DNA of 33,971 nt from an uncultured Lachnospiraceae bacterium (lineage in GTDB: Bacteria > Bacillota > Clostridia > Lachnospirales > Lachnospiraceae): positions 1-33,971 of the forward strand of contig CACYTU010000035.1 of NCBI GenBank assembly GCA_902777355.1, given 5' to 3'. The first letter of the stretch is position 1; each line of letters opens with the position of its first letter. Made by a program: the position numbers and the translations under genes. This document shows positions 10,401-33,971 of this stretch, one piece after another. Below the pieces are notes generated by a model. The model saw nothing but the letters and a program-made list of their open reading frames with translations, did no database searches and had not been told where the DNA came from.

Positions 10401-10535
10401 AAAGCAGAAAACTGTAAGTTGGATAATTCTAAAACAGAAAACTGTAAAGCAGAAAACTGTAAGTCGGAAAATTCTAAAACAGAAAACTGTAAAGCAGAAA
10501 ACTGTAAATCGGAAAATTCAAAAACAGAAAATAAA
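10401..10535 (+). repeat. 45-bp tandem repeat, three copies
   Basis: Three consecutive 45-base units start at 10401, 10446 and 10491. Each unit is itself three related 15-base blocks of the type AAAgCAGAAAActGT. The array is A-rich, contains no complete gene and sits between the rplQ terminator and ecfA1. Translated in one frame it would give K-x-E-N-x repeats, but a genuine start is lacking. Confidence 0.85.
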
Positions 10536-10608
10536 AGAAGAAAGCTGTAAAACGGAAACTATTAGACCGGGACTGGAGAGATCCGGTATTGTCTGAGAAG
10601 GGTGAGCC

Positions 10609-11463
10609 ATGATTAAGATCAGAGACCTGATTCATGATTACATAAAGAGGGACGAGGAGGGTAATCCCGCGGGAACCGTCCGCGCGATCGATGATGTCTC
10701 CCTGGATGTCAAACCCGGACAGTTTATAGCGATCCTGGGGCACAACGGCTCGGGAAAATCGACACTGGCCAAACACCTCAATGCCCTGCTGCACCCCACA
10801 GAGGGGACAGTATGGATCAAGGGGATGGACACAAAGGACCAGTCACTGCTGCTGGATATCCGTCAGACAGCGGGCATGATCTTTCAGAATCCGGACAATC
10901 AGATCATAGGCCAGGTTGTTGAGGAAGATGTCGGATTCGGACCTGAAAATATGGGGGTGCCCACAGAGGAGATCTGGGAGCGCGTAGAGGAGAGTCTGAA
11001 AGCGGTCGAAATGTATGAGTACCGCAAGAAGTCCCCCAATCGTCTGTCCGGAGGACAGAAACAGCGCGTTTCGATCGCAGGTGTCATCGCCATGCATCCC
11101 GGATGCATTATCATGGATGAACCCACTGCCATGCTTGATCCCTCCGGGCGAAAAGACGTCATCGATGCGGCCTGGACCCTGAACCGGGGCGAGGACATCA
11201 CCATCATCCTCATCACACATTACATGGAGGAAGCCATCCGGGCGGACCATGTTTTTGTCATGGATAAGGGCAGGATCGCCATGCAGGGGACACCGCGCGA
11301 GATCTTCTCAAAAGTGACAGAGCTCCAGCGGCTCCATCTGGACGTTCCCCAGGTCACTCAGCTTGCCTATATTCTCAGGGAAAACGGACTTGATATTCCG
11401 GAGGGAATACTGACCAAGGAAGAACTGGCAGAGGCACTTAAAAAGATTGGAAAGGCCGGGTGA
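10609..11463 (+). CDS. ecfA1: ECF transporter ATPase EcfA1
   Basis: A 284-residue ABC ATPase, one of two nucleotide-binding subunits of the energy-coupling factor module that drives uptake of vitamins and trace nutrients by interchangeable S components. Walker A is GHNGSGKST (about residues 44-52), followed by the Q-loop FQNPDNQIIG, the signature LSGGQKQR, Walker B CIIMDEPTAMLD and the H-loop THYMEE. The C-terminal stretch DVPQVTQLAYILRENG is typical of EcfA. The GTGAG before the ATG is a modest ribosome binding site. ecfA2 follows after 7 bases. No substrate-binding S component is encoded here, as usual for the shared group II module. Confidence 0.96.
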   Translation: MIKIRDLIHDYIKRDEEGNPAGTVRAIDDVSLDVKPGQFIAILGHNGSGKSTLAKHLNALLHPTEGTVWIKGMDTKDQSLLLDIRQTAGMIFQNPDNQIIGQVVEEDVGFGPENMGVPTEEIWERVEESLKAVEMYEYRKKSPNRLSGGQKQRVSIAGVIAMHPGCIIMDEPTAMLDPSGRKDVIDAAWTLNRGEDITIILITHYMEEAIRADHVFVMDKGRIAMQGTPREIFSKVTELQRLHLDVPQVTQLAYILRENGLDIPEGILTKEELAEALKKIGKAG

Positions 11464-11470
11464 ATCATCG

Positions 11471-12322
11471 ATGGGAATCAAACTGGAAAATGTGAGCTTC
11501 GTTTATGAGCAGGGTACTGCCATGCAGACGGCGGCTCTCAAAGATGTGAATCTGGAAATACCTGACAACCAGTTTATAGGCCTGATCGGCCACACGGGTT
11601 CCGGCAAATCCACGCTTGTCCAGCTCCTCAACGGACTTCTCCGCCCTACATCCGGGCGCGTGCTCTACAACGGGGAGGATATTTTCGGGGACAAGTATGA
11701 CAGAAAAGCACTGCGTGCCGCAGTCGGTCTGGTCTTCCAGTACCCTGAACACCAGCTTTTCGAGGTGGATGTTCTCTCGGATGTCATGTTCGGCCCCCGA
11801 AATCTGGGACTGGACGAAAAGACCTGCAAAAAGCGCGCCATAGAAGCCCTCGAGGATGTCGGGATTTCTGAAGAGTACTATAAGACTTCTCCCTTCGACC
11901 TCTCGGGAGGCCAGAAGCGGCGGGTGGCCATTGCCGGCGTAATCGCCATGCATCCCCATATCCTCATTCTCGATGAGCCGACCGCAGGACTTGATCCCCG
12001 TGGCCGCGACGAGATCCTCGGCCTGATCTCGGACATGAAGAAAAAACTCGAGATGACCATCATTCTGGTCTCACACAGTATGGACGATGTGGCCCGTTAT
12101 GTGGAGAGGATCGTGGTGATGGGAAAGGGGAAAAAGGTGTTTGACGACACTCCGTCAAATGTTTTCCGCCATTATGAGGAACTCGAGGAACTGGGTCTCT
12201 CCGCCCCTCAGATTGTCTACATTATGAACGAACTGAAAAAACAGGGGATCGATGTTCCTGCTGACGTTCTGACCGTGGAGGAAGCCGCAGGGGAGATCCT
12301 GAAATTGTATCAGAAGAACTGA
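11471..12322 (+). CDS. ecfA2: ECF transporter ATPase EcfA2
   Basis: A 283-residue partner ATPase of EcfA1. Walker A is GHTGSGKST, the Q-loop FQYPEHQLFE, the signature LSGGQKRR, Walker B ILILDEPTAGLD and the H-loop SHSMDD. The ATG at 11471 gives MGIKLENVSFVYE, the normal start; a TTG at 11447 inside ecfA1 would add eight residues but is less likely. Its ribosome binding site lies within the ecfA1 end, which suggests coupling. It is separated from ecfT by 260 bases that contain a tandem repeat array, which is odd because these genes usually abut. Confidence 0.96.
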   Translation: MGIKLENVSFVYEQGTAMQTAALKDVNLEIPDNQFIGLIGHTGSGKSTLVQLLNGLLRPTSGRVLYNGEDIFGDKYDRKALRAAVGLVFQYPEHQLFEVDVLSDVMFGPRNLGLDEKTCKKRAIEALEDVGISEEYYKTSPFDLSGGQKRRVAIAGVIAMHPHILILDEPTAGLDPRGRDEILGLISDMKKKLEMTIILVSHSMDDVARYVERIVVMGKGKKVFDDTPSNVFRHYEELEELGLSAPQIVYIMNELKKQGIDVPADVLTVEEAAGEILKLYQKN

Positions 12323-12353
12323 GTGATCGGTTCAAACCGGCAGAACTGAGTGA

Positions 12354-12511
12354 ACCGGCAGAACCATTCCGTATGAAAAGGGACCGGCAGAACCCGCTCC
12401 CTATGAAAAGGGACCGGCAGAACCATTCCGTATGAAAAGGGACCGGCAGAACCCGCTCCCTATGAAAAGGGACCGGCTGAAGCGTTCCGTATGAAATGGG
12501 ACCGGCTGAAC
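12354..12511 (+). repeat. Alternating 29/30-bp tandem repeat between ecfA2 and ecfT
   Basis: Units start at 12354, 12383, 12413, 12442, 12472 and 12501 (partial). They share ACCGGCAGAA and TATGAAAAGGG; copies 1 and 3 have CCATTCCG in the middle, copies 2 and 4 have CCCGCTCCC, so the array is a 59-base dimer present twice plus a diverged copy. The units are contiguous, so this is not a CRISPR. It lies inside an operon, between the two ATPases and the transmembrane subunit. Confidence 0.9.
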
Positions 12512-12582
12512 ACGCGCATGCACAAAGATCCTGCCCGGCTGCCCGGGAAAAAAGTTTTGTGAACGGAGGCATAACCGAGATT

Positions 12583-13398
12583 ATGTTTAAAGATATTACC
12601 CTCGGACAATATTATCAGACAGATTCTATCCTGCACCGGCTTGACCCCCGCGTCAAACTGGTCGGTACGCTCGTCTATATTATTTCCCTGTTCGTAGTGG
12701 ATACCTTTGTGGGTTACTTCCTTTGCGCAGCTTTTCTGATTGCCATGATCGCGCTCTCCAATGTGCCTGTCGGATACATCGTGCGCGGTATGAAGGGAAT
12801 CCTGATCCTGCTGCTCATCACTATGTCATTCAACCTCTTTCTGACGCCGGGCGAAGTTCTGGTCCGTCTGGGCTTTCTGAAAATCACGAAAGAAGGCCTG
12901 ATTTTTGCCGCCAAGATGGGCATCCGCCTTTCCCTGCTCGTGATCGGATCCTCCCTTATGACTCTGACCACGACGCCCAATCAGCTGACAGACGCGATCG
13001 AGAGCCTGCTCAATCCAGCCAAGCGCTTTCATGTGCCAGTTCACGAGATCGCCATGATGATGTCAATCGCTCTCCGCTTTATCCCGATCCTGATGGAGGA
13101 GACTGACAAGATCATGAAGGCCCAGATTGCGAGGGGAGCTGACTTCGAGAGCAAAAACCTGATCAAAAAAATGAAGAGTCTCGTGCCGCTGCTTGTGCCC
13201 CTCTTTATTTCGGCATTCCGCCGGGCCAACGACCTGGCAATGGCTATGGAAGCCAGATGCTACCACGGCGGCGTCGGCCGGACCAAGATGAAGCCCCTGA
13301 TTTATAAAGGGCGTGACCGCACTGCCTACATTGTACTCATTGCTTTTTTCGCGCTTTGTGTCATCCTGAGGGTGGTCCGTCTGCCTTTTCTGATTTGA
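12583..13398 (+). CDS. ecfT: ECF transporter transmembrane subunit EcfT
   Basis: A 271-residue integral membrane protein that couples ATP hydrolysis by EcfA1A2 to movement of the S component. The start at 12583 (MFKDITLGQYYQTDSILHRL) matches the family; GGAGG at 12565-12569 is 13 bases upstream. The family signature LDPRVKL is near residue 25. The two coupling motifs are AQIARGADF and AMEARCYHGG, the second with Cys replacing Gly, a common Firmicutes variant. Four or five hydrophobic segments precede them and one follows at the C-terminus. Confidence 0.95.
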   Translation: MFKDITLGQYYQTDSILHRLDPRVKLVGTLVYIISLFVVDTFVGYFLCAAFLIAMIALSNVPVGYIVRGMKGILILLLITMSFNLFLTPGEVLVRLGFLKITKEGLIFAAKMGIRLSLLVIGSSLMTLTTTPNQLTDAIESLLNPAKRFHVPVHEIAMMMSIALRFIPILMEETDKIMKAQIARGADFESKNLIKKMKSLVPLLVPLFISAFRRANDLAMAMEARCYHGGVGRTKMKPLIYKGRDRTAYIVLIAFFALCVILRVVRLPFLI

Positions 13399-13492
13399 AA
13401 TAATGACAGCTTTGCCCGCCGGCTGCGCCTCGAAGAGGAGCTCAGCTGCGGTTTTGCGCGGAGTGCTTCAATGCTTCAATATGGAGGGAAAA

Positions 13493-14368
13493 TTGAAAAA
13501 AAGAATCCTTCTGGCTGTTGCCTATGACGGTACGGATTATGCGGGCTTTCAGGCGCAAAAGAGCGGTGTGCCGACCATTGAGGGAGAACTGAACAGAGTT
13601 CTGACAGAACTGACGGGCCAGCCCGTAGAGGTGATCGGCGCCAGTAGAACGGACGCAGGTGTCCATGCTTACTGCAACCTGGCTGTTTTTGACACCGAGA
13701 GCCGCATTCCCCCTGAAAAGTTTGCCTACGCGGTCAATGTCCGCCTGCCTGAGCAGATCTGTGTCCCCGTATCCATGGAGGTTGCTGAAGATTTTCATCC
13801 CAGGCGGTGCAGCACGGTCAAAACCTATGAGTACCGTATTTATAACGCGCAGATGCCTGATCCCATGAAGCGCCTCTACTCATATTTTTCAAGGTATCAC
13901 TTTGATGTGGACGCCATGCGGGAGGCTGCGGAGTACCTGGTGGGAGAACACGATTTCAAAAGTTTCTGCAGCACATATTCTTCCGCGAAGACGACAGTTC
14001 GGGAAGTCCTCTCAGTTCAGGTCGAGGAAGTGCCGTGCAGCATGTCTTACAAGGGCTATACTGCCTCCTCTCAAACGGGGGCGGCAGCTGACGGGGTTAA
14101 TGATTGGACAGATGGCAGAAGCGGTATGCCCAGGGAAATAGTCATCCGTGTGAGCGGAAGAGGCTTCCTCTACAACATGGTGCGCATTATAGCCGGCACT
14201 CTGATGGAAGTGGGCCGCGGCTTTAAAAAGCCCGGAGATATTCCTGAGATCCTGCAGGCCTGCGACCGCCGGGCGGCTGGCGCAACAGCCCCCGCATGCG
14301 GACTTACCCTGGTCCGCTACGAGGTCCTGGAACCGGGATATGAGATGGTTTTCGGCAGCAGGCCCTGA
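13493..14368 (+). CDS. truA: tRNA pseudouridine(38-40) synthase TruA
   Basis: A 291-residue pseudouridine synthase that modifies positions 38-40 of the tRNA anticodon arm. The core motifs YDGTDYAGFQ, GASRTDAGVHA (catalytic Asp about residue 54) and GRGFLYNMVRIIAGTL are present. I chose TTG at 13493 because GGAGG at 13483-13487 is well placed; an ATG at 13481 would add four residues but has no ribosome binding site. A hydrophilic insert of about 35 residues (about 180-215) precedes the GRGFLYNMVR motif. It follows ecfT, the usual Firmicutes order. Confidence 0.93.
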   Translation: MKKRILLAVAYDGTDYAGFQAQKSGVPTIEGELNRVLTELTGQPVEVIGASRTDAGVHAYCNLAVFDTESRIPPEKFAYAVNVRLPEQICVPVSMEVAEDFHPRRCSTVKTYEYRIYNAQMPDPMKRLYSYFSRYHFDVDAMREAAEYLVGEHDFKSFCSTYSSAKTTVREVLSVQVEEVPCSMSYKGYTASSQTGAAADGVNDWTDGRSGMPREIVIRVSGRGFLYNMVRIIAGTLMEVGRGFKKPGDIPEILQACDRRAAGATAPACGLTLVRYEVLEPGYEMVFGSRP

Positions 14369-14409
14369 CCATTTTATTCATCCATGTTTGTAAATGCAGG
14401 ATCATGGGC

Positions 14410-14494
14410 ACATGTATGAAAGTCTTAAAAAGCATGATTGAGAAACATGTATGGAAATCTTAAAAAACATGATCGAGAAACATGTATGGAAAAA
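14410..14494 (+). repeat. 35-bp tandem repeat, 2.4 copies
   Basis: Units starting at 14410, 14445 and 14480 share ACATGTATGgAA and the tail CATGATtGAGAA. The third copy is truncated and runs straight into the rplM promoter region. ACATGT is itself palindromic. Confidence 0.8.
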
Positions 14495-14508
14495 AGTACA
14501 GGTTTAAG

Positions 14509-14537
14509 TTGACACTGCTATTTGTGTAAGCTAAAAT
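14509..14537 (+). promoter_or_regulatory. Promoter of rplM-rpsI
   Basis: TTGACA (14509-14514), 17 bases, then TAAAAT (14532-14537): a perfect -35, optimal spacing and five of six -10 matches. It would start transcription near 14544 and give a leader of about 300 bases before rplM. Confidence 0.85.
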
Positions 14538-14540
14538 GAT

Positions 14541-14630
14541 TTGGTGCGACGGCGGTATGCGCATGTTTTTTGCATGCACCCAAACTCCCCGGTTTTGGTA
14601 AAAGCCTGCTGCCACTGCGACTCGCACTTG
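14541..14630 (+). promoter_or_regulatory. Structured leader of rplM, candidate L13 autoregulatory element
   Basis: Starting near the predicted transcription start, GTGCGA (14544-14549) can pair with TCGCAC (14622-14627) to close a domain. It contains a hairpin GCATG-TTTTTT-type loop-CATGC (14561-14577) and a second, CCAAA with TTTGG, just after it. Position and overall architecture fit the L13 leader known upstream of rplM in low-GC Gram-positive bacteria, through which L13 is thought to control its own operon. The match was made by eye only. Confidence 0.5.
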
Positions 14631-14844
14631 TAATTTGAATAACAAATAAATTGAAGATAAGAGCAGATGAGACTGATTTTTGCGCAATCCGCCGCTGTTT
14701 TCCTGTTCAGGGAAACAGGTGATGCCGGATTTCTGCCGGGATCTGACCGATACGATGATCCCGTCTGTCCGGACCGGACATGTTGATGTGCGGCATGCCG
14801 GAAGAGCTGATTTCAGTGTATACGCTTCGGAATTGGAGGAAATC

Positions 14845-15273
14845 ATGAAAACCTATGTGCCAGGCGCAGCAGATATTCAGAAGAAATGGTATGTAGTGGA
14901 CGCGACCGATATGACTCTCGGCCGCCTTGCAAGCGCGGTTGCCAACGTTCTGCGCGGCAAGAACAAGCCCATCTATACTCCTTTTATTGATACAGGCGAC
15001 TATGTGATCATCGTCAATGCAGAGAAGATCAAAGTCACCGGCAAGAAGATGGATCAGAAGATTTATTTCCGTCACTCCGAGTATGTCGGCAGCGCGAAGT
15101 ACACAACTCTTCGCGAGATGCTCCGCACAAAGCCCGTCAGGGTTGTCGAGCACGCAGTCCGCGGCATGCTTCCCAAGGGAAGACTCGGCGACGACATGTA
15201 CAGGAAGCTGCATGTCTATGAAGGTCCTGAGCACAAGCACGCTGCACAGAAGCCTGAAGAGCTGAAGTTCTGA
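14845..15273 (+). CDS. rplM: 50S ribosomal protein L13 (uL13)
   Basis: A 142-residue L13, an early 50S assembly protein. The start at 14845 (MKTYVPGAADIQKKWYVVDA) follows TTGGAGG; the longer open frame upstream is the leader. Conserved parts are DMTLGRLASAVANVLRGKNK, GDYVIIVNAEKI, HAVRGMLPKGRLG and KLHVYEGPEHKHAAQKPE. It forms the universal pair with rpsI 103 bases downstream. Confidence 0.97.
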   Translation: MKTYVPGAADIQKKWYVVDATDMTLGRLASAVANVLRGKNKPIYTPFIDTGDYVIIVNAEKIKVTGKKMDQKIYFRHSEYVGSAKYTTLREMLRTKPVRVVEHAVRGMLPKGRLGDDMYRKLHVYEGPEHKHAAQKPEELKF

Positions 15274-15855: not shown

Positions 15856-15875
15856 TTTCGTGAAATTGTCGGATG

Positions 15876-20140: not shown

Positions 20141-21022
20141 ATGTCAACAATTCTGGATACAATTGCAGGGCACACACGTTTTCGTGTCGCTGAAAAAAAG
20201 AAAAAACTCCCCCTTGAGGAGCTGCGCGCCAGGGCTCTTGACCTGAGCCGGAATGCCGGCGGAGCCCTTGACCTGTCAACAGATGCGGCTCTGTCAGCAG
20301 ATGCAGCCATGTCAGCAGATAAGGTTCTGCCTGCAGATGCGTCCGAGGAATTCCCCTTCAGGAGGGCCCTGTCCGCGCCGGGAATCCAGTTTATCTGCGA
20401 GTGCAAAAAGGCCTCTCCTTCAAAAGGTCTGATCGCCCCGGATTTCCCCTATCTGGATATTGCTCTCGCTTACGAAGCAGCAGGCGCCGCCGCCATTTCT
20501 GTTCTGACAGAACCCCGTTGGTTCCGGGGTGAGGACCGCTTCCTGCAGGAGATCGCCCGGACAGTCAAAACCCCCTGCCTGCGCAAAGACTTCACGGTCG
20601 ATCCCTACATGATTTATGAGGCAAAAATCCTGGGGGCATCCGCTGTGCTCCTGATTTGTGCCATCCTGGATGATGGAGAGCTGAGGGAATATCTGTCCAT
20701 TGCCCATGAACTCGGCCTGTCCGCCCTCGTCGAGGCTCATGATGAAGAGGAGGTTTGCAGAGCACTTGACGCGGGAGCCGGGATCATCGGTGTCAATAAC
20801 CGCGATCTCCGGACATTTACGGTGGATATTAATAATTCCGTCCGCCTCCGCAGCCTGGTCCCCGATGACAAAATATATGTGTCCGAGAGCGGGATCCGCA
20901 ATGCGGAGGACGTCGAAGTCCTGTACCGCAGCCGGACAGACGCGGTTCTGATCGGAGAGACCCTGATGAGGAACCCTGACAAGGCGGCCGGTATCCGCGC
21001 GCTGCGAAGCAGATGCAGCTGA
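20141..21022 (+). CDS. trpC: Indole-3-glycerol phosphate synthase with repeat insert
   Basis: A 293-residue TIM-barrel enzyme that closes the indole ring. The catalytic parts CECKKASPSKG, LRKDF, ISVLTEPRWFRG, GVNNRDLRTF and VSESGI are intact. It is about 30 residues longer than the usual 255-265 because a low-complexity stretch (about residues 34-70) lies between the N-terminal helix and the first strand. Residues 46-69 are four 6-residue units (STDAAL, SADAAM, SADKVL, PADASE). The start at 20141 has GAGGTG upstream. Confidence 0.96.
   Translation: MSTILDTIAGHTRFRVAEKKKKLPLEELRARALDLSRNAGGALDLSTDAALSADAAMSADKVLPADASEEFPFRRALSAPGIQFICECKKASPSKGLIAPDFPYLDIALAYEAAGAAAISVLTEPRWFRGEDRFLQEIARTVKTPCLRKDFTVDPYMIYEAKILGASAVLLICAILDDGELREYLSIAHELGLSALVEAHDEEEVCRALDAGAGIIGVNNRDLRTFTVDINNSVRLRSLVPDDKIYVSESGIRNAEDVEVLYRSRTDAVLIGETLMRNPDKAAGIRALRSRCS
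20276..20347 (+). repeat. 18-bp in-frame tandem repeat inside trpC
   Basis: Four 18-base units start at 20276, 20294, 20312 and 20330, with the common pattern TCAGCAGATGCaGCcaTG. The unit is a multiple of three, so the frame is kept. Just upstream, GCTCTTGACCTG and GCCCTTGACCTG form another short duplication. Confidence 0.85.
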
Positions 21023-21859: not shown

Positions 21860-21927
21860 CAGACTGTCCGGAATGTTTTCTGTGACCGTATATGAGTCTG
21901 CGTCGGAACTGACATCTGAATATATTT

Positions 21928-22029
21928 GAGACTAATGTTTATATGAGGCAAGTGTTTATATGAGATTAATGCTTATGTGAGGCAAGTGTTTATATGAGAT
22001 TAATGCTTATATGAGGCAAGTGTTTATAT
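21928..22029 (+). repeat. 34-bp tandem repeat, three copies, before trpB
   Basis: Units start at 21928, 21962 and 21996, each GAGAtTAATGcTTATaT followed by GAGGCAAGTGTTTATAT. Within each unit the two halves are themselves similar. The array ends eight bases before a sequence (22037-22051) that also precedes ecfT and that carries the trpB ribosome binding site. Confidence 0.9.
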
Positions 22030-22056
22030 GGGACCATTGTGAACGGAGGCAAAAAA

Positions 22057-24311: not shown

Positions 24312-24398
24312 AAAAAACAGGGCATATGTGTGAACAGCTGCAGTACAGACCCGCCTGAAACGTGAGGTGTTTCTGCGGCAATGCGAAGCTTTGAAGAT

Positions 24399-24462
24399 GA
24401 GGAGCTTTGCCAGTGAGGACCTCTGCCAGTGAGGAGCTATGCCGGCGAGGGGATATGCAGCA
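24399..24462 (+). repeat. 16-bp tandem repeat, four copies
   Basis: Units start at 24399, 24415, 24431 and 24447 with the pattern GAGGAgCTaTGCCaGt; the last copy has diverged. The array lies just downstream of trpA. Confidence 0.75.
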
Positions 24463-24985: not shown

Positions 24986-25079
24986 CAGTAAAGAGACCCG
25001 GGAAGGATCCACTGTGCCCCGGCGCTTTCGCAATGCTTATTTTTTTTTACTTTTTTATCAAGAGGACCTAAACGTAAAT

Positions 25080-28000
25080 ATGAGCAGGGACTACATTCTC
25101 ACGCTGGAAGCGATCGACCGGCGGCTTTATTCGAAAGACAAGACCAGACCGCTGGCCAGATTTTCGGCATCAGACCTTTCTTTGCCCAGAGGCAACCACA
25201 CCAAAGACGGGCTTTCGGAGGAATGCCTCACCTATATGACGGAACTGCTGACCAGGCACGGGCGCCCCAATCTGCAGATGAATCATTTTCTGTTTCTGCA
25301 TTTTGGAGGGTGGGACGCCCTGATGGACTATATTCAGGCGGATCCGAAACGCCGCGGTTTTTTGCTGCGCTGTGAAGAAAAAGGCTATTCTGTTGCCTCG
25401 GAGCGGGCTCTGTTTGACCGCATGCTGGTGGACGGCGATCCGGAGCAGGGAGAGGTCAGTGCGTCCGCTTCCATGCAGTGCATTCTGGAGGCCAACACAC
25501 TGATCGTGCATAAGTACTGCGGCATATACAGCGGAAAGACCAGGCAGGATCTGCGCGATGAGATCGAAGGCTTCCTGCAGAACAGTCCGGAAGAGGAGAA
25601 GAGTCTGGTACCTCAGATGAATCTCCCGGACCGCTACGCGATCTATCGCCACATCCGTTCCCTGCTGGAGGCTTTTGATGAATATTGCGCGAGAGGAGAA
25701 GATGAAAAGGCAGACCGCTCCCTGGGAACTGCCCTGACCTGGCTGCTGCTGGCGGCTCTTCTGCGCGACAGCTGCCGCTGTCTCTGCAGCCTTCTGCCCC
25801 AGAATATCCAGATCCTCAAAGTGGAGGAGAGGGAGTCCCGCCTCAGCGGCCTCCCGGCTGTGGCCTCTGTCTCACAGCCGCCCCGGAGCGGGCGGATCTT
25901 CAAGGGCAGGCAGAAGGAGCTGGAGTGGATCGGGGACCGTTTCAGACACAGACAGAGCCCTCTCTGGATCACCGGGGACGGAGGCTGCGGCAAGACCTCT
26001 CTGGCCCTGCAGTACGCGTCGGAGGAGGATAGTGCCTGCCTTTTTGCTCCTTTTCACGAAGACCTGTTCAATACTATCGCGGAGGTCCGCTTCCAGGACC
26101 GGCTGCGCTGGGAGGAAATAGCGCCGGAGGAGCTGTTTGAATTTCACATTTCCCGCATAGCGCGCTATGGAAGCCGGTTGCTGCTGATCATTGATAATTT
26201 TGACGCGGACCGGTACGACCGTACTTTTTTCGAGATGATGGGCGCGGTCTGCGAGGCGGATCCGGAGGGGAGAAGCAACGGAGACATACTGGATCTTCTC
26301 TGCCGGACAGGCGCAAATATCCTGTTTACGACGCGGCTCTTTGTTCCGCCCCAGTATCCATCGATCTGCCTCTCGGACGAGGAACATCTTCTGACGCGCG
26401 CACAACTGACAGAGCTGGCCAAAGAGATCTATGACGACGGGGAGTGGACAGAAGAAGAGGAAGTGATGATGGAAGAAATCATCCTCTCTGTCGGAAAACA
26501 TGTCATGGTCGTCGAGCTGATCGCGGCAGCCCTCAAATATAATGCAGGCTTCAGCACTGTCGAAGAGGTCCTGGCAAAAGTGCGCAGCGGCAGGTATGCC
26601 CGGATCAGCGCGGGCGATGGAGCCGGCAGGGGTCCTGGTTCGGATGTGTACAGCCGGATGACGCAGCTCTTTTCTTTTTCCGCTTACACAAGAGAACAGC
26701 AGCTTCTGCTCCGCATTTTGTCCCTGCTTCCCTCAGGAGGACTGGACCGGGGGCTTTTCATGGAATTGAGCCGGGGAACATTTCGCCCGGAGGTTCTGCG
26801 CGGAATGCTGCTCAGGTTCCGTGACCTGCATCTTGCTTCGGTCGGAAAAACTGTTTCCATGCACCCTGTGACGGCGGACCTGGCAGGGGACAAGCTGGTC
26901 CCGGATGCGGAAAACTGCGGGGATTTTATCCGCCGGGCGCTTGCTTATTATGAACAGTATTCGGAAAAAAATTACGACTATCGTCTGCTGGCCCAGATCT
27001 CCCGTCTGCTCATGCGCTTTTATTTCAGACTGAGAGAAAATGAACAGGCCCAGACAGCGGGGGAAGGCCTGGCTGAAAAATATCCTGCCCGGCATTCCTT
27101 TGGGGAGAGCGAGGAGCGCACTCTTGCTGCGTGGAAGGTTTCTCTGATCGAGTATGAACTCGGTCACCCGCTGACAGCATTGCAGTGGGCACTGGCGGCA
27201 GAGAGCCATGCAGATGCCGTACAGGCTGATCGGGACAGTTCAGGGGCGGACGCGCAGCGGGCACTGGCGGCGGAAAGCCATGCAGCCGCCGGACAGGCTG
27301 ATCAGGATAGCTCAGGAGCGGACACGCAGCCGGCACTGGAGGCAGAGAGAGCCGCCGGACAGACTGATCGGGACAGTTCAGGAGAGGACACGCAGCCGGC
27401 ACTGCCTGCGGGGGATCCGGCTTTTCTTGCATCCGTCTGCAAAGCGGCCGCCCAGGCAGAAGCGGCTCTGGGCCGCTTTGAAGACGCCCTCATGCATTAC
27501 CGGAGGGCAATCGCTCTGCAGCAGTCTTTGCAAAACGGAGGCATCCCGGAGATCGCTGTCACTTATAATGACCTTGCGGTCGCCCTGTACGAGATGGATG
27601 AGTTTGTGGAAGCGGAAGACCTTCTCGAAAGAGCGCTTCAGATTCAGACAGAATACTACGGATCTGACAGTATCCGGATCTCCACGACCTACAACAACCT
27701 GGGACTGCTGTTTTCCGCCCGCGGAGATCATGAACTGGCGGTGACCTATTATGAAAAATCACTGCAGCTGCAGAAAAAATGCTATGGGGAGATGCATCCC
27801 GGTACCGCTGTGATCTGCTGCAACCTGGGTCAGGAATACGGCGAATTATCACAGATGGACAAGGCCCGGGCCTTTTTTGACCGCGCCCTGAGGATCAATA
27901 TGGATCTCTTTGGTGAGGACTACTCAGGAAATGCCGGTATCTGTAACAATATCGGCTTTATGCACGACGAACTTGCCCGGCAGGCAGAGGAAGAGGGGCG

Positions 28001-28283
28001 CGAAGAAGATGCCCAAGCCCTGATGGACCATGCTTTTCACTGGTATTGGAAGGCCCTCTCCATTCTGGATAAGAATTACGGAACGGAAAACCCCCACAGG
28101 GCAGATCTGTACAGCAATCTTGCGGGCGCATATCTGTTCAGGGGAGATACAGAGAACGGATATCACTGCTTTGAGACGGCAGCCGCAATACTGGAGAAGA
28201 TATTCGGGTCTGACCATCCGCGCACGCAGGCGGTCCTGGGGGATTATGCCGCGGCCAGGGAATGGTTTGAGGAAAAATCCTGA
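25080..28283 (+). CDS. STAND-class NTPase with C-terminal tetratricopeptide repeats
   Basis: A 1067-residue multidomain protein. Residues 1-270 form an uncharacterised mostly helical domain with several cysteines. The NTPase domain has Walker A GDGGCGKTS (about 299-307), Walker B LLLIIDNFDAD (about 368-378) and a sensor-like ILFTTRL (about 411-418), as in NB-ARC/STAND proteins. A helical region follows, then a 24-residue tandem repeat (about 704-773), then at least six kinesin-light-chain-type TPRs of about 42 residues (about 785-1060). No membrane segment or signal peptide. The start is uncertain: ATG 25080 has AGAGGA 13 bases away; GTG 25014 has GGAAGGA at good distance but would add 22 odd residues. 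Such proteins act as ligand-sensing switches in regulation or in defence; which applies here is unknown. Confidence 0.85.
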   Translation: MSRDYILTLEAIDRRLYSKDKTRPLARFSASDLSLPRGNHTKDGLSEECLTYMTELLTRHGRPNLQMNHFLFLHFGGWDALMDYIQADPKRRGFLLRCEEKGYSVASERALFDRMLVDGDPEQGEVSASASMQCILEANTLIVHKYCGIYSGKTRQDLRDEIEGFLQNSPEEEKSLVPQMNLPDRYAIYRHIRSLLEAFDEYCARGEDEKADRSLGTALTWLLLAALLRDSCRCLCSLLPQNIQILKVEERESRLSGLPAVASVSQPPRSGRIFKGRQKELEWIGDRFRHRQSPLWITGDGGCGKTSLALQYASEEDSACLFAPFHEDLFNTIAEVRFQDRLRWEEIAPEELFEFHISRIARYGSRLLLIIDNFDADRYDRTFFEMMGAVCEADPEGRSNGDILDLLCRTGANILFTTRLFVPPQYPSICLSDEEHLLTRAQLTELAKEIYDDGEWTEEEEVMMEEIILSVGKHVMVVELIAAALKYNAGFSTVEEVLAKVRSGRYARISAGDGAGRGPGSDVYSRMTQLFSFSAYTREQQLLLRILSLLPSGGLDRGLFMELSRGTFRPEVLRGMLLRFRDLHLASVGKTVSMHPVTADLAGDKLVPDAENCGDFIRRALAYYEQYSEKNYDYRLLAQISRLLMRFYFRLRENEQAQTAGEGLAEKYPARHSFGESEERTLAAWKVSLIEYELGHPLTALQWALAAESHADAVQADRDSSGADAQRALAAESHAAAGQADQDSSGADTQPALEAERAAGQTDRDSSGEDTQPALPAGDPAFLASVCKAAAQAEAALGRFEDALMHYRRAIALQQSLQNGGIPEIAVTYNDLAVALYEMDEFVEAEDLLERALQIQTEYYGSDSIRISTTYNNLGLLFSARGDHELAVTYYEKSLQLQKKCYGEMHPGTAVICCNLGQEYGELSQMDKARAFFDRALRINMDLFGEDYSGNAGICNNIGFMHDELARQAEEEGREEDAQALMDHAFHWYWKALSILDKNYGTENPHRADLYSNLAGAYLFRGDTENGYHCFETAAAILEKIFGSDHPRTQAVLGDYAAAREWFEEKS
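27189..27419 (+). repeat. 72-bp in-frame tandem repeat inside the STAND NTPase gene
   Basis: Units start at 27189, 27261, 27333 (66 bases) and 27399 (partial), each beginning GCACTGgcGGC. They encode about 24 residues of the type ALAAESHA..GQADRDSSGADTQ. The array forms a hydrophilic linker between the helical region and the TPRs. Lengths are multiples of three. Confidence 0.9.
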
Positions 28284-28392: not shown

Positions 28393-28470
28393 GACTTCCC
28401 CGGAAGACTGCTCCGGGAGACTTCCCCGGAAGACTGCTCCGGGAGACTCCCCCGGAAGACTGTTCCGGGA
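28393..28470 (+). repeat. 26-bp tandem repeat, three copies
   Basis: Units start at 28393, 28419 and 28445: GACTtCCCCGGAAGACTGcT followed by CCGGGA. Each unit contains the palindrome-like CCCCGGAAG..CCGGGA. The array ends two bases from the stop codon of the gene on the minus strand. Confidence 0.9.
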
Positions 28471-28472
28471 GA

Positions 28473-29147
28473 CTACTCAAGGGATGAGGCTAATTTGGTA
28501 TTGATCCTGCCCATCACTTCCGTGTAATATACAAGCTCTTCATTGGACATATCTTCGTCATCCTGGATCTTCTCCAGGGCTGCCATGGTTTCCGTGTAGT
28601 CCTTCATGTACTTGGCGTAATCCAGCATCATCGCGGCTGAGTCAGCAGGATCCGCACTGTTGTATTTGTCCATGAATTCGACGTAAGTGTCAATAAAATC
28701 TTCGTATTCATCCATTGCTTTTTTAAAGGAGGGACGGATTCCGTTTACAGGGGCATCATCTCCGGATCCATTGTCCTCAGAGGCCTCTTCTTCTGCCTGG
28801 CTGCCGTCTTCGGCTTCCGCTTCCTGCTCAGGTTCTGCGTCATTGTCCTCTGTTTCCGCTTCCGCTTCCTGCTCCGGGGCTTCTTCCTTTTCCGCTTCTT
28901 CCCGGTCTTCTTCGACAGAATCCTGCTGTGCCTCTTCTTTTTCGGGCTCTTCTGTTATTTCTTCTGTTTCTTCTTCTGTTTCTTCCTCTTTTTCTTCATC
29001 CGGCTCCGATTCCGCAGTCTGTGTTGCGGCGGCCGGTTCCTCTTTACTGTCTTTTGACTTGGAACCCTTTCCGCCCATCGTGGAAAAAGCGAAAATCAGA
29101 ATGAGAATCAGTATGATCAGGGGAAGCTTACTCTTTTTCTTTTTCAT
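28473..29147 (-). CDS. Membrane-anchored acidic protein with DUF6591-like C-terminal domain
   Basis: A 224-residue protein. The ATG at 29147 (MKKKKSKLPLIILILILIFA) is chosen because GGAGG lies just upstream, inside a longer frame from 29159. A single hydrophobic segment (about residues 8-24) follows the lysines; there is no cysteine, so it is an N-terminal anchor and not a lipoprotein. Residues about 35-130 are an extremely acidic Glu-rich stalk (EEETEEETEEITEE type). The C-terminal helical domain, starting at PSFKKAMDEYEDFIDTYVEF and ending in ELVYYTEVMGRINTKL, resembles DUF6591 of Firmicutes surface proteins. Function unknown; probably outside the membrane. Confidence 0.75.
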   Translation of the reverse strand: MKKKKSKLPLIILILILIFAFSTMGGKGSKSKDSKEEPAAATQTAESEPDEEKEEETEEETEEITEEPEKEEAQQDSVEEDREEAEKEEAPEQEAEAETEDNDAEPEQEAEAEDGSQAEEEASEDNGSGDDAPVNGIRPSFKKAMDEYEDFIDTYVEFMDKYNSADPADSAAMMLDYAKYMKDYTETMAALEKIQDDEDMSNEELVYYTEVMGRINTKLASSLE

Positions 29148-29291
29148 ATTATCCTCCATATGATAGTGATTGATGATAAATCTTTTGCCATATCTACTGC
29201 TTTGCAGATATCTCCAATATAGCTTTCACGCGAAATCTGCTCTATGCAAAACGCGGGGATTGCTGCCCCCGATCTTGCACCTGAAATGCAG

Positions 29292-29357: not shown

Positions 29358-29493
29358 AATAGTGTGGTTATGGGCGGGTGCCCGCAAAATGTATGAAAAG
29401 ATATAGAATGATGTAAAGGTAAAAAGCCAGGAAAAGGCTCTGAGTCTCGTCAATATGCACATACAACCGCAGGACCATTGCGCAGCTCAGAAG

Positions 29494-29600
29494 GAGATGT
29501 TGCGTGCCTGGTACTTGGGCGCTGGTTTTTAGCGCCCTTAGTACCGCTGCCAGCGAGGATTGAGCGAGAGCGTGTCCAAGGTGTTTGTTTTTGACCCCGA
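29494..29600. ncRNA. Candidate structured element (strong hairpin plus conserved-looking flank)
   Basis: GGTACT-T-GGGCGCT (29510-29523) pairs with AGCGCCC-TT-AGTACC (29531-29545), a 13-bp interrupted stem, followed by a GC-rich segment with CCGCTGCCAGCGAGG and GAGCGAGAGCG. AAGGAG and an 11-codon frame ending in the hairpin loop lie at the left end. The block does not resemble the flanking AT-rich DNA. It could be a small RNA, an attenuator or one copy of a dispersed repeat family; strand unknown. Confidence 0.35.
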
Positions 29601-29657
29601 CATCATAGAATAATAATGCCTGATTATTTTAAATATGTATAAATGCAGGCAGGGGGC

Positions 29658-32198
29658 TTACCAAACGTCCAGCCTGTACTCCGGAGCAAGGTACATACCG
29701 TCGCCCTCTTTCGTGTTGTATGTCCGGTGGAATTCCTCAAACTGGACCACGATCGCGTTGGTGCGGAGATAGGCGAGGGGGTGGGAATCCTGCTCAATGC
29801 AGTAGGCCTCTGTCTCCAGGGTGGTCAGGGTCCGCCAGTTGGATGCCAGGGTGCGGAAGAAGATGTCGTAGTCAAAATCGGGCTCGTCGGCTGCGATCTT
29901 CAGCATGCATTTGACACCGGTGAGATCGGCGATGGCTTCAGTGTCCAGCATGGCGCCTTTTACTTTATAGCTGGGGATAGGCTCAAAACCGTTATAATAG
30001 TCGACCAGTTTCTGGGCGCGGGAGTGGAAGCGCCTGTAGTCGTCCTCTGTCCACCAGTTGCGCAGATTTCCTTTTTCATCGTACTGTCTGCCCGAAGTGT
30101 CGAAGGCATGGGAGATCTCATGGCCGATCATGATGCCGATATGTCCCAGTCTCTCCTCACGGGGCATGGAGTCGCTGTAGAAATTTCCGCCAAGGATACC
30201 GGCGGGGATATTGATGGAATTGTCCAGCGGATAATAGTAGGCGTTGACTTCCTGAGGCGCCGCGATCCATTCGCTGAGGTCGACTGACTGGTTGACTTCC
30301 GAAGCCATTTTCAGAGTGGTGTTTTTGGATATTGCGATGCGGGCCTCCACGAGACTGCCTCCATCGCCGGGACCTCTGAAATTGATCACCTGTTTTCTGA
30401 CCCTGCCGGTCCCGTCTCCCACAGACTTGCCGCCTGTAGAACCTCCGGAGGAGATAATGGTCGTGTCTTCGTCCATCAGGGTGAATTCATTCACCCGCTC
30501 CTCCGGACTGGCGACCCGGATCGTGAGATTGTCCAGCTTCCTGATCGCTTCCGCCTTGGTGGAGTCGGACAGGAAATCCTCGTCCTCCAGCATGACGCGG
30601 TAATAGCTGATGGCATCATTGATCAGTTCAGTGATGTCGCTGCGTGTCTTGTCGGTAATATAGGTTTCCGCATAGACATCTCCCAGTTCCATCTCGAGGA
30701 CAGAATTGACAGCGTCGCAGGCGGCCTTCCTGTCATCCAGCTGACCGGAGGATCCGGACAGAATATTGCGGACGTCAATCATGCGGTTGTAGCAGTCGTG
30801 ATCGAGCAGATCCATGAACTGCAGCACATCCTGGACCAGGAGATAGGATTTCATCTTTTCCAGATGGGCTTCATCGTAGAGACTGCTCATGGCCGCCAGC
30901 CAGTCGGGCTCCTGAAGAATAAATACATTTGAAGCAGCAAGGCCTGCTCCTTCCAACATGCCGATCAAAGGAAAATTCCCCTGCTCCTTTTCGAGTTCCT
31001 GCAGGGTGCGGGGATTGTTGGTGCGGATGGAGGAGTCCTCGGCATTTTGTTCCTCGGTGGTCATCATGTGCGCAGCCATCTCGCACTCGAATTCATAGCT
31101 CTGCTTAAGGACCGTATCCCGTTCCTCTTTGCTGTAGCCGAGACGCTCCAGCATATAGCCCGCCGCATACATGTAGCGGGGCTGGGTCTTCCAGCTGTCA
31201 GGATCCAGCTGCGAATAGTACATGGCATCCTGAAAGGTCAGTGAAGGCGGAGAAATATAGACTGCTATGGAGGAGGCGTCATTGGGATTTGCCGCCGTGA
31301 AAGAGGAACAGAGGGGAAGAGCCTCGATCGTCGTCAGCGGATCGGAAAGATATTGGGTCATCTGATCCAGACTGCTGACATTCTGCAGAGGCTCGAGGAT
31401 GTCTGCCAGAGGGGTCATGCCCGCCTTGTCCCGCGCGTCCCAGTCCAGCCACATCTTATAGTAATCCCGCACCAGCCTCTGGCAATGGGCGATATAGGGA
31501 TCCGAGAAGGTATCGTCGCTTTCCAGAATCTCCAGAAGCTCTGCGTCCACCTCGAGCTGACGCTCAGAGAAAGCGTCGTAGGAGACATATCCGGAAGGAA
31601 TGGAATTGGAAGAGAGCCAGTCTCTGTTTACCGCCGCGTGGAAATCCTCTGTCTCAGTGAGACCGTCCAGTTTCTTTGAGTTCTCGACCAGGTCGGAACA
31701 GATCCAGTTGTGGGCGCTTGCCATCTCCGCGGGATCGGATTTGTCATAGGGAAGGGTGAAAGCAGGCTCGGAGGACACCGGCTGTACCATGTTCCCGGAT
31801 GGATCCGAAGCAGGATCAAGCGGCCCTGCACCGTTTATGCCGATGCTTCCATCTGCTCCGCCATTTCCTTCCGGGACTGAACCGGCATTTCCGTCCTGAA
31901 CAGATCCGCTGCTGCCGCCGGGAATGGAACCTGCGGAAGTCTGACCTGCTGCCTGCTCTATACTGCCGGTTCCCGCCGGGGCTTGGGTTTCCTGTGTCGC
32001 ATTGACGCTCTGCCCCTGAGAACCGGGCAGGACAGATTTCATGCTGCAGCCCGCAAGACTTCCGATTGTGATACAGAAGGCGAGAAATGCCCCGATGAAG
32101 CAGGATGAAGCCAGATACATGTCAGTCTGACGCGCTCTGGAAGACATTTTTTTTCGGGGCGCTGTTTTCTTTCTCTTTGTACTGAATAGCTTTTTCAT
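29658..32198 (-). CDS. M13 family metallopeptidase lipoprotein (neprilysin-like)
   Basis: An 846-residue secreted zinc peptidase. A basic N-terminus of 27 residues, a hydrophobic stretch and the lipobox SLAGC (Cys51) indicate a lipoprotein; the basic region is unusually long, and M18 is an alternative start, but ACGGAG before the first ATG supports 32198. A Gly/Ser/Ala-rich linker (about 52-150) follows. The catalytic half has VNAYYYP, the zinc motif HEISH (693-697), the third ligand E754 with D758 in DTEAIADLTG, and the terminal YRLDVW. M13 enzymes cleave oligopeptides; here the substrate is unknown. It acts outside the cell membrane. Confidence 0.93.
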   Translation of the reverse strand: MKKLFSTKRKKTAPRKKMSSRARQTDMYLASSCFIGAFLAFCITIGSLAGCSMKSVLPGSQGQSVNATQETQAPAGTGSIEQAAGQTSAGSIPGGSSGSVQDGNAGSVPEGNGGADGSIGINGAGPLDPASDPSGNMVQPVSSEPAFTLPYDKSDPAEMASAHNWICSDLVENSKKLDGLTETEDFHAAVNRDWLSSNSIPSGYVSYDAFSERQLEVDAELLEILESDDTFSDPYIAHCQRLVRDYYKMWLDWDARDKAGMTPLADILEPLQNVSSLDQMTQYLSDPLTTIEALPLCSSFTAANPNDASSIAVYISPPSLTFQDAMYYSQLDPDSWKTQPRYMYAAGYMLERLGYSKEERDTVLKQSYEFECEMAAHMMTTEEQNAEDSSIRTNNPRTLQELEKEQGNFPLIGMLEGAGLAASNVFILQEPDWLAAMSSLYDEAHLEKMKSYLLVQDVLQFMDLLDHDCYNRMIDVRNILSGSSGQLDDRKAACDAVNSVLEMELGDVYAETYITDKTRSDITELINDAISYYRVMLEDEDFLSDSTKAEAIRKLDNLTIRVASPEERVNEFTLMDEDTTIISSGGSTGGKSVGDGTGRVRKQVINFRGPGDGGSLVEARIAISKNTTLKMASEVNQSVDLSEWIAAPQEVNAYYYPLDNSINIPAGILGGNFYSDSMPREERLGHIGIMIGHEISHAFDTSGRQYDEKGNLRNWWTEDDYRRFHSRAQKLVDYYNGFEPIPSYKVKGAMLDTEAIADLTGVKCMLKIAADEPDFDYDIFFRTLASNWRTLTTLETEAYCIEQDSHPLAYLRTNAIVVQFEEFHRTYNTKEGDGMYLAPEYRLDVW

Positions 32199-32310
32199 GA
32201 AGAACTCCGTAAAACAGGAATGATGTAAAAAAATGATTGTAACGAGTGTCCATGGGTGTTTCGGGTTTTGCCTTAAAAAACCGTTTCAAAACCAATGTAA
32301 AAACTTATGT

Positions 32311-32361
32311 AAAAACGTCTGCTGTCACGTATTGCGTGGCGGCAAGGGCAGAAACGTTTTT
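32311..32361. terminator. Bidirectional terminator downstream of hflX
   Basis: AAAAACG-TCTGC (32311-32322) pairs with GCAGA-AA-CGTTTTT (about 32348-32361), with an inner CACG/CGTG hairpin. The flanking A- and T-runs provide U-tracts on both strands. On the minus strand it ends hflX ahead of the peptidase gene. Confidence 0.75.
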
Positions 32362-32441
32362 CCAATCAATATTTTATCACGTTGCTGTAAGCCTGTGCAT
32401 GTTTAAATAGTGAATATACAATGGAAAAATGGTGTTAAAAA

Positions 32442-32590
32442 CAGTGCGAAAAACTGCACGAAATATGGCGTGAAAACCGCACGAAATATGGTGCGAAAAA
32501 CGACACAAAGACGGTGCGGAAAACGGCACGGAATTTAGTGCGGAAAACTGCGCGGAAAATGGTGCGGAAAACGGTGAGAAATATGGTGCA
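32442..32590 (-). repeat. 23/24-bp degenerate tandem repeat after hflX
   Basis: Units start at 32442, 32465, 32488, 32511, 32535, 32559 and 32583 (partial), of the type ATGGTGCGgAAAACgGCaCG. A further half-unit may begin at 32429. The array begins shortly after the hflX stop on the minus strand and lies between it and the terminator. Confidence 0.85.
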
Positions 32591-32614
32591 GGGTTACGGT
32601 TCAGGGTTTGTTCA

Positions 32615-33971
32615 TTATCTGACCAGCCGCTGGATCCGCTCCGCGTCATTTCTGCGGCATCTTGCTTTGACAGAGATTCCTTCCGGAAGATATTCTTCCC
32701 AGAGCAGGGCGCCGCAGCTGCGTATTTCATGCAGAAGCGACCCCTTTTTGTAGGGGATGAGAAACTCCGCAGTGATCCGGTCTTCTCCCAGAGCGTCGTC
32801 GATCAGCGTGAGGATTTCCGGGATCCCGACTCCTCTGCCCGCGGCCAGGAAGAGAATATCCCCCCGTCTGTAAGGGATAGACTCCGGGATCGGCCTGCTT
32901 TTCTGCAGGGGAAATCTTCCTGAAGGCTCCGCATCAGCCTTACCGCCCGCGGTGTTCCCCGGCTCATATCTGTCTGCCTGAAGATTTTGATCTTCCGGTG
33001 CATATCTGTCTGCCTGAAGATTTTGATCTTCCGGTGCATATCTGTCTGCCTGAAGTTTTTTTTCTTCCGGCTTATATCTGCCCTGAGGGCTGTCTGCCGC
33101 AGCAGGTGTCCCGCCCGCGGCCAGCATTGCCAGATCCGTCTTGTTGTAGAGATAGACGACAGGAATATGTCCTGCACCGATTTCAGACAGAGTTTTGGCG
33201 GTCACCTCGATCTGTTTGCGATAATCCGGATCGGAGAAATCGACTACCTCCAGAAGGAGGTCCGCACAGCAGACTTCATCCAGCGTGGACCGGAAAGCCT
33301 TGACCAGAGAATGGGGAAGATCACTGACAAAACCGACAGTGTCGGAGAGCAGGAAGGGAATATGCCCCGGGGCGTCGATCCTGCGGACAGAAGTGTCCAG
33401 TGTGGCAAAGAGCATGTCTGCCTCAAAGACCTGCTTCTTGTTCTCCTCGTCTGACTGTATGATATCCCGGCCGTTTGCCTGCTTTTTGGAACAATGACTG
33501 AGCAGGGCGTTCATGACGGTGGATTTTCCCGCGTTGGTGTAGCCGACCAGAGCGACCCGGGTCATGCCTGTCTGCATGCGGCGGCTCCGCTGAGTCGTGC
33601 GTTCGCGGCTGACGACCTCCAGTTCCCGGCGAAGCTCGGCGATCCGGTGCTCGATGCGGCGGCGGTCCAGTTCCAGCTTCTGCTCGCCGGCGCCCTTGTT
33701 TGAGAGCCGGCCGCTGCCGCCGCCCTGACGGGAAAGCTCAGCCCTCATGCCTACAAGACGCGGCAGCATGTACTGGAGCTGGGCGGACTCTACCTGGAGC
33801 CTGGCCTCCCTTGTCCTGGCGCGGGAAGCGAAAATCTGCAGGATCAGCCCTGTGCGGTCCAGGACCTCCGTGTCGAGAATCTTCTCCAGGTTGCGCATCT
33901 GCATGGGAGTGAGAGCCTCATTGAAAAGTACAATGTCCGCATCGTGCTCTTCGACTTCTTTTTTCAGGGAA
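32615..33971 (-). CDS. hflX: GTPase HflX, 3' part, with repeat insert
   Basis: The frame is open to the right edge of the window (first full codon at 33970), so the N-terminus is missing. The visible part begins in the HflX domain (VLFNEALTPMQMRNLEKIL, RTGLILQIFASRARTREARL, QYMLPRL), then the G domain: G1 GYTNAGKST, G3 DTVGF, G4 YNKTD. HflX is a ribosome-binding GTPase that splits stalled or hibernating ribosomes. Between G4 and the last part of the G domain lies an unusual hydrophilic insert of about 80 residues with three 12-residue repeats (LQADRYAPEDQN). The conserved domains on both sides are intact, so the gene is probably functional. Confidence 0.94.
   Translation of the reverse strand, partial: SLKKEVEEHDADIVLFNEALTPMQMRNLEKILDTEVLDRTGLILQIFASRARTREARLQVESAQLQYMLPRLVGMRAELSRQGGGSGRLSNKGAGEQKLELDRRRIEHRIAELRRELEVVSRERTTQRSRRMQTGMTRVALVGYTNAGKSTVMNALLSHCSKKQANGRDIIQSDEENKKQVFEADMLFATLDTSVRRIDAPGHIPFLLSDTVGFVSDLPHSLVKAFRSTLDEVCCADLLLEVVDFSDPDYRKQIEVTAKTLSEIGAGHIPVVYLYNKTDLAMLAAGGTPAAADSPQGRYKPEEKKLQADRYAPEDQNLQADRYAPEDQNLQADRYEPGNTAGGKADAEPSGRFPLQKSRPIPESIPYRRGDILFLAAGRGVGIPEILTLIDDALGEDRITAEFLIPYKKGSLLHEIRSCGALLWEEYLPEGISVKARCRRNDAERIQRLVR
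32965..33072 (-). repeat. 36-bp in-frame tandem repeat inside hflX
   Basis: Units start at 32965, 33001 and 33037; the first two are identical and the third diverges in its second half. On the minus strand they encode LQADRYAPEDQN-type units. The length is a multiple of three, and the array falls in a surface loop of the G domain. Confidence 0.92.

What the first reader, a model, noticed from the sequence alone, without database searches (positions are those of the whole stretch)
10401..33072. Unusual density of unrelated short tandem repeats in a core-gene region
At least ten arrays with different sequences and unit lengths (16, 18, 23/24, 26, 29/30, 34, 35, 36, 45 and 72 bases) occur within 23 kb, at most gene junctions and within three conserved genes. 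The units are unrelated to each other, so one mobile family cannot explain them; it points to a genome-wide process that creates or tolerates tandem duplications, for example slippage-prone replication or altered mismatch or recombination functions. Core-gene regions of Clostridia normally lack this.
Basis: partly seen in the sequence, partly recalled or inferred. Interest (0 to 1): 0.75.

Follow-up and report, generated by a model that had tools for sequence, protein, structure and literature searches.

The report
Gut bacterium swamped by tandem repeats
A rumen bacterium and its close relatives appear to keep duplicating short stretches of their own DNA in place, filling gene gaps and protein loops with unrelated repeat arrays, though the usual DNA-repair suspects look largely intact.

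Summary
The window holds 12 merged tandem arrays (0.35/kb) against 0.1 per shuffled window. Twenty other stretches of the same rumen Lachnospiraceae genome hold 183 arrays in 391 kb. 186 of 195 arrays share no sequence with another, so no mobile family explains them. High density (0.18-0.46/kb) marks eight sampled genomes that group together; eleven other genus members with 20 kb or more sampled have 0-0.13/kb. At three junctions examined, arrays differ between species. Inside genes 48 of 52 arrays have periods divisible by three, between genes 40 of 133: selection filters them. Isolated exact two-copy duplications: 37 in 1.0 Mb of the clade, 1 in 0.52 Mb outside; 18 of 37 have no junction homology. 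Best reading: a lineage-wide process makes or retains homology-poor short tandem duplications, which slippage then expands. The driver is unidentified. Closest precedent: Ehrlichia ruminantium.

The parts
7549..7596 (.).
   Evidence: TRF; ORFs
10385..10558 (.). 45-bp array (3.9 copies, built from 15-bp units), L17-ecfA1 junction
   Evidence: TRF; of 12 rows of relatives with both anchors, 3 have other arrays (39, 11 and 30 bp) and 9 none
12354..12515 (.). 29/59-bp array, ecfA2-ecfT junction
   Evidence: TRF; between anchors 261 bp here, 30-52 bp in 9 of 12 rows of relatives (two rows are the same genome), 111-256 bp in the other 3, of which G026 has a 27-bp array sharing the word CCGGCAGAA with this one
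14410..14492 (.). 35-bp array, truA-rplM junction
   Evidence: TRF; no 35-bp array in the 12 rows of relatives with both anchors, 3 of which have other short arrays
20272..20320 (+). 18-bp in-frame array near the N terminus of trpC (gene 20141-21022)
   Evidence: TRF; insert absent in 4 orthologues, one of which has a different shorter insert
21923..22030 (.). 34-bp array, trpF-trpB junction
   Evidence: TRF
24398..24458 (.). 16-bp array after trpA
   Evidence: TRF
27188..27411 (+). 72-bp array in a TPR/AAA protein (gene 25014-28283), period a multiple of three
   Evidence: TRF; Pfam
28393..28474 (.). 26-bp array, junction of TPR gene and DUF6591 gene
   Evidence: TRF
28853..28997 (-). 18-bp (score 49) and 12/24-bp arrays in the acidic part of the DUF6591 protein (gene 28473-29159)
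   Evidence: TRF; Pfam
32444..32589 (.). 24-bp degenerate array, junction of M13 peptidase gene and hflX
   Evidence: TRF
32959..33080 (-). 36-bp in-frame array in hflX (gene 32615-33904)
   Evidence: TRF; insert of about 70 residues absent in G017, replaced by a shorter stretch in G026, which has its own insert elsewhere

Best explanation
One clade of rumen Lachnospiraceae has a lineage-wide excess of short in-place tandem duplications. Step 1: a stretch of about 10-100 bp is copied twice in tandem, in about half of the cases with no homology at the junction, most simply by the replication machinery re-copying a short template stretch. Step 2: the pair gives homology for ordinary slippage, which expands it to 3-12 copies. 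Step 3: point mutation blurs the copies. Step 4: purifying selection removes arrays that shift reading frames or sit next to start codons, so survivors lie in gene gaps and flexible protein loops. Shown: genome-wide excess in 10% of the genome sampled, restriction to one clade among the genus members sampled, lack of sequence families, species-specific arrays at the shared sites examined, frame filter, excess of exact two-copy duplications, low junction homology. Inferred: the replicative origin, the order of steps, that exact copies are recent. Unknown: which gene or condition is responsible.
For: Own genome: 195 arrays in 424,586 b over 21 stretches, window included; 13 arrays in 2,122,930 shuffled bases. 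Clade G000, G026, G008, G017, G028, G010, G009, G013: 0.459, 0.386, 0.308, 0.271, 0.242, 0.222, 0.183, 0.176 per kb; 11 other genus members with at least 20 kb sampled 0-0.133. The RpoA gene tree groups the eight with one more relative, L002, at support 1.0. Exact tandem duplications per 100 kb: 19.1 own, 12.8 clade, 0.88 outer. Isolated exact two-copy duplications of 12 bp or more: 10, 27 and 1 in 424,586, 579,907 and 516,003 b; of the 37, 18 have zero junction excess and 10 have 3 or more. The 27 lie at 24 places; in the strictest subset of 22, 11 are zero and 5 are 3 or more. Simulated blunt duplications give 55% zero and 6% three or more. 48 of 52 genic arrays have periods divisible by 3, 40 of 133 intergenic (p 7e-19 and 0.46 against one third). 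Arrays thin out towards a downstream start codon (17, 19, 24, 14, 6 by fifths; p 0.025 against even) and are densest in convergent gaps (2.16 against 1.19 and 1.01 per kb, not tested). Units are no more hairpin-prone than other intergenic DNA (86 units, p 0.87). Median gene gap 279 bp own, 175.5 clade, 87 outer. In-frame inserts that differ between genomes in HflX, TrpC, M13 peptidase, MutS, MutL, PolA.
Against: No strain of the same species was available, so no copy-number change was seen. Raised retention could give the same picture. The own genome has the most arrays but not the most exact two-copy events: 5.3 per 100 kb non-coding against 16.1 in the other seven and 1.2 (one event) outside; G009 has none. 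10 of 37 events do have 3 or more bases of junction homology, more than blunt joining predicts. Among all exact tandem runs of 14 bp or more in the own genome only 4 of 50 have zero excess, but those include pieces of longer arrays. L002, inside the clade on the tree, has one array in 10.6 kb (0.095/kb). Ten of 36 genus relatives were not sampled, and G001 and G002, under 6 kb each, read 0.214 and 0.369/kb. Gap medians of single genomes overlap between clade and outer group. Outside the genus 4 of 9 genomes chosen for dense rpoA loci reach 0.17-0.25/kb, those loci counted.
Confidence: 0.62

Rival explanations
1. Relaxed selection: duplications form at a normal rate, but small effective population size or weaker deletion bias lets them persist, so gaps and loops swell.
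For: Gene gaps are longer in the clade pooled and most arrays are not fresh (median 88% match between copies). Five of eight clade genomes are 3.3-4.2 Mb.
Against: Exact two-copy duplications in non-coding DNA are also 4 and 13 times more frequent than outside, though the outer figure is one event. Frame and start-codon filters still act. G019 is 3.8 Mb with 0.025 arrays/kb.
Confidence: 0.25
2. Loss or weakening of a known repeat-stabilising factor (mismatch repair, RecD2, RecJ, SbcCD, PolA flap nuclease) raises slippage.
For: These are the classical suspects (recalled). Clade MutS, MutL and PolA, and SbcD of the own genome, carry loop inserts, which could impair them. Eight of ten outer genomes carry a DinB-type polymerase of 150 bits or more that none of the eight clade genomes shows.
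Against: MutS and MutL: 7 of 8 clade genomes, motifs kept in the six aligned. RecJ in 8 of 8, in two pieces in G013. SbcD in 8 of 8, split over frames or contigs in G013 and G009. PolA in 7 of 8, in pieces in G010 and G009 and missing in G026; its 5' nuclease motifs are kept in the five clade genomes where they could be read. RecD2 in 8 of 8. The DinB is also missing in low-density G015 and G019.
Confidence: 0.12
3. End joining of staggered breaks after fill-in makes the blunt duplications.
For: About half of the exact two-copy duplications have no junction homology.
Against: Ku was found in 0 of 37 genus genomes and in 2 of 61 genomes searched.
Confidence: 0.03
4. Arrays are selected functional elements (regulatory or phase-variable loci).
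For: Genic arrays are in frame. At ecfA2-ecfT, G026 has an array that shares a 9-base word with that of the window; the word also lies at 27 places outside arrays in the sampled own genome.
Against: Units are unrelated within the genome, arrays thin out before start codons and favour convergent gaps, and species differ at the three junctions examined.
Confidence: 0.04
5. Assembly or binning artefact.
For: The genome is a fragmented, incomplete record (84% complete, 5% contamination, 150 contigs).
Against: All 20 other stretches sampled contain arrays, the trait recurs in seven further assemblies, copies differ by point changes and genic arrays keep frame.
Confidence: 0.03

Closest known systems
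Ehrlichia ruminantium genome-wide tandem repeats in long intergenic regions (PMC10710844, two passages seen; Collins 2005 seen only in its reference list and not held; Frutos 2006 likewise only a reference)
   Same: Tandem repeats in unusually long non-coding regions, lowered coding fraction, described as active expansion and contraction.
   Different: That genome is about 1.3 Mb and about 64% coding, of an intracellular parasite. Here a 3.9 Mb gut bacterium has arrays in protein loops as well, and low-repeat sister species allow comparison. Activity is inferred, not observed.
Repeat-rich Burkholderia pseudomallei genome (PMC1853098, passages seen)
   Same: Tandem arrays mostly intergenic; those in coding regions mostly in multiples of three.
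   Different: 69.9 and 102.1 arrays per Mb there (TRF, over 30 bp, at least 80% similar). By my version of that cut, 391 per Mb here, 202 in the seven clade relatives, 48.5 in the outer group. Motifs there 3-16 bp, with 36.3% of arrays at least partly duplicated elsewhere; here periods of 10-150 bp (shorter ones not counted) and 186 of 195 unmatched in the sample.
Mismatch-repair mutators and contingency loci (recalled)
   Same: Repeat instability.
   Different: Those act on units of one to a few bases; MutS and MutL keep their motifs here.

Membership tests
E. ruminantium-type genome-wide tandem repeat expansion | Many tandem repeats concentrated in non-coding DNA | tested here: met
   Intergenic 1.171 arrays/kb, genic 0.167
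E. ruminantium-type genome-wide tandem repeat expansion | Long intergenic regions and low coding fraction | tested here: inconclusive
   Median gap 279 bp against 87 in the outer group, coding 73% by my own simple caller, which misses some genes; less extreme than 64%
E. ruminantium-type genome-wide tandem repeat expansion | Active expansion and contraction (copy number varies) | not testable with these tools
   One genome per species is held
Dispersed or mobile repeat family (MITE, REP, mobile minisatellite) | Copies share sequence across sites | tested here: not met
   186 of 195 arrays singletons, groups of 3, 2, 2, 2; shared 9-mers at the level of random segments
Mismatch-repair-deficient mutator | mutS or mutL lost or broken | tested here: not met
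   Open frames with motifs kept in the own genome and five clade relatives aligned; not found in G010, 75% complete. Activity not testable here
CRISPR array | Repeats separated by unique spacers | tested here: not met
   Units abut head to tail
Phase-variable simple sequence contingency loci | Units of one to a few bases that shift frame | tested here: not met
   The arrays described have periods of 10 or more and 48 of 52 genic ones keep frame. Shorter periods were not surveyed separately

The most novel reading that the evidence does not exclude
A heritable insertion-mutator state: a clade-specific change in replication or lagging-strand processing makes largely homology-independent 10-100 bp tandem duplications at high rate, inflating the genome and loosening protein loops, the repair proteins' own loops included.
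Probability: 0.35. Interest if true: 0.8.

Novelty: new variant of a known kind. Interest (0 to 1): 0.6.

Why it matters
How short tandem duplications are born is usually inferred from rare events. A bacterial clade with roughly 180-460 arrays per Mb in the samples, nearly all unrelated in the one genome compared, and sister species with far fewer, would give many natural events at every age and a ready comparison for finding the gene responsible. It also shows proteins gaining flexible loops by tandem duplication within one genus.

Tried and rejected
Mobile family: rejected by all-against-all comparison and shared-word counts; the largest group has three arrays, with a 'gacggttct' and 'gtctc' type motif. 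Hairpin-driven origin: 86 units of 18 bp or more fold no better than other intergenic DNA. End joining by Ku: absent from the genus. Losses of mismatch repair, RecJ, SbcD, PolA, PolA 5' nuclease domain, RecD2 or DinB: none tracks the trait, with gaps in incomplete genomes told under the rivals. Searches covered 18 of the 37 genus genomes. The DinB lead failed because two low-repeat genomes also lack the high-scoring copy. PolC, DnaE, LigA, SbcC, ExoVII and RecA were not searched.

One-copy ancestor of an array: not found; junctions in relatives are too diverged. Papers: searches for repeat-rich Lachnospiraceae, repeat-rich gut bacteria, prokaryote repeat density and flap-related duplications listed no title on this clade, and (short tandem duplications with microhomology in bacteria) listed nothing; only listings were seen. 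PMC12699852 was searched for five terms (Lachnospir, Clostridi, Bacillota, Firmicutes and one phrase) and held none. The library holds only open-licence papers, so this is no proof that nothing is in print.

Dropped rows: seven fetched stretches that read mostly N were left out of counts. G001 and G002 (under 6 kb each) are in the table but not in the outer group. The outer group had 15 genomes, and 17. Ten of 36 genus relatives were not sampled. One DinB frame (G015) was read in the wrong frame and not used.

None of this moved the odds.
Full report
WHAT WAS CHECKED. The window is a whole contig of 33,971 b from a 3.87 Mb genome of 150 contigs, 84% complete, 5% contaminated. Its nearest relatives by RpoA are Lachnospiraceae assemblies, several of rumen origin by name. 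Genes found by Pfam include ribosomal proteins L6, L17 and L13, secY, rpoA, a two-ATPase transporter set with a CbiQ-type protein, truA, trpD, C, F, B and A, an M13 peptidase and hflX. Shuffled controls give 0.1 array per window against 12 found.

IT IS GENOME-WIDE. Twenty further stretches of the same genome, 390,615 b, hold 183 arrays; every stretch has at least one (0.05-0.82/kb). With the window that is 195 arrays, 0.459/kb, 4.8% of bases. The window, at 0.353/kb, is below its genome's average. Scaled up, the genome would hold about 1,800 arrays (inference). By a cut like that of a published repeat-rich genome the density is 391 per Mb against 69.9 and 102.1 there (PMC1853098 passages). 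A 50 kb stretch of E. coli K-12 gave none.

IT BELONGS TO A CLADE. Among 80 homologous rpoA loci of other genomes, 37 have no array and one, only 5 kb long, exceeds the window's density. Like for like, the first 18.5 kb of the window has 4 arrays, 0.22/kb, and four of the 80 loci reach 0.2 or more. The two loci nearest by RpoA, L002 and L003, have one array each (0.095 and 0.048/kb). Sampling more widely, 26 of 36 genus relatives, shows eight genomes (own included) at 0.176-0.459/kb and eleven others with at least 20 kb sampled at 0-0.133. The eight, with L002, form a group of support 1.0 in the RpoA gene tree of 90 sequences; their RpoA is 94-97% identical to the window's, while no other genus hit passes 87%. 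Of nine genomes outside the genus group of that tree, chosen because their rpoA locus was dense, four reach 0.17-0.25/kb (those loci counted). The trait is the top of a continuum.

ANATOMY. Periods run from 10, the cut, to 150 bp, copies 1.9-12, median match 88%. 133 arrays lie between genes, 52 inside, 10 straddle. Genic periods are multiples of three in 48 of 52, intergenic in 40 of 133. Arrays between genes make up 10.8% of non-coding DNA, against 5.8% in the seven clade relatives and 1.4% in the outer group. Pooled gene gaps are longer (median 279, 175.5, 87 bp). These figures use my own simple gene caller, which misses some genes; with callers trained per genome the gap medians of single genomes overlap, for example 113 in clade genome G010 and 158 in outer G023. 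Arrays thin out towards a downstream start codon (p 0.025) and are densest in convergent gaps.

COMPARISON SITE BY SITE. At three gene junctions the relatives carry other arrays or none. Of four outgroup rows (G023, G032, L004, L006) only G023 has an array, at truA-rplM. At ecfA2-ecfT, G026 has an array that shares a 9-base word with the window's. HflX, TrpC and the M13 peptidase carry in-frame inserts that differ between species. So do MutS, MutL and PolA; SbcD of the own genome has an insert relative to G023.

MECHANISM. Isolated exact two-copy duplications are taken as the youngest events (inference). There are 10 in the own genome, 27 in the seven clade relatives and 1 in 17 outer genomes; none in 2.76 Mb of shuffled sequence. 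The 27 lie at 24 places. Of the 37, 18 have no junction homology and 10 have three bases or more; chance after a purely blunt duplication would give 55% and 6%. In the strictest subset of 22 the figures are 11 and 5. So about half show no homology, and a minority fits ordinary slippage at short repeats. Ku is absent from the genus, so Ku-dependent end joining is out. MutS, MutL, RecJ, SbcD, PolA, RecD2 and DinB-type polymerases are each found in at least seven of the eight clade genomes, with misses and fragments in incomplete assemblies. The driver remains open.

VERDICT. A real, strong, clade-wide trait with one close precedent in kind, Ehrlichia ruminantium (PMC10710844 passages), in a very different organism and with protein-loop growth added. 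Formation against retention is not settled.

Noticed in passing
window 14544-14627: A conserved element of 78-103 nt before rplM with a closing helix GTGCG...CGCAC, in 9 distinct versions across fetched loci; no Rfam match even at E up to 10. Perhaps an uncatalogued ribosomal-protein leader; covariation support is weak (3 of 15 pairs with a change on both sides).
   Followed up: partly
G023:C54 (L240) and clade genomes: A DinB-type polymerase of 150 bits or more is found in 8 of 10 outer genomes searched and in none of the 8 clade genomes; outer G015 and G019 lack it too.
   Followed up: partly
G000:C46:32385-33338 (L237): SbcD of this genome carries an acidic insert of some 60-70 residues relative to G023, inside the matched nuclease region.
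   Followed up: no
L090:440-521, L100:7389-7510, L100:11082-11208: Three arrays share a 'gacggttct' and 'gtctc' type motif, the only array group larger than two.
   Followed up: no
window 25014-28283: A 1,089-residue protein with AAA-like and TPR repeats lies between trpA and hflX; tblastn at 1e-20 found no relative in the loci held at that time.
   Followed up: no
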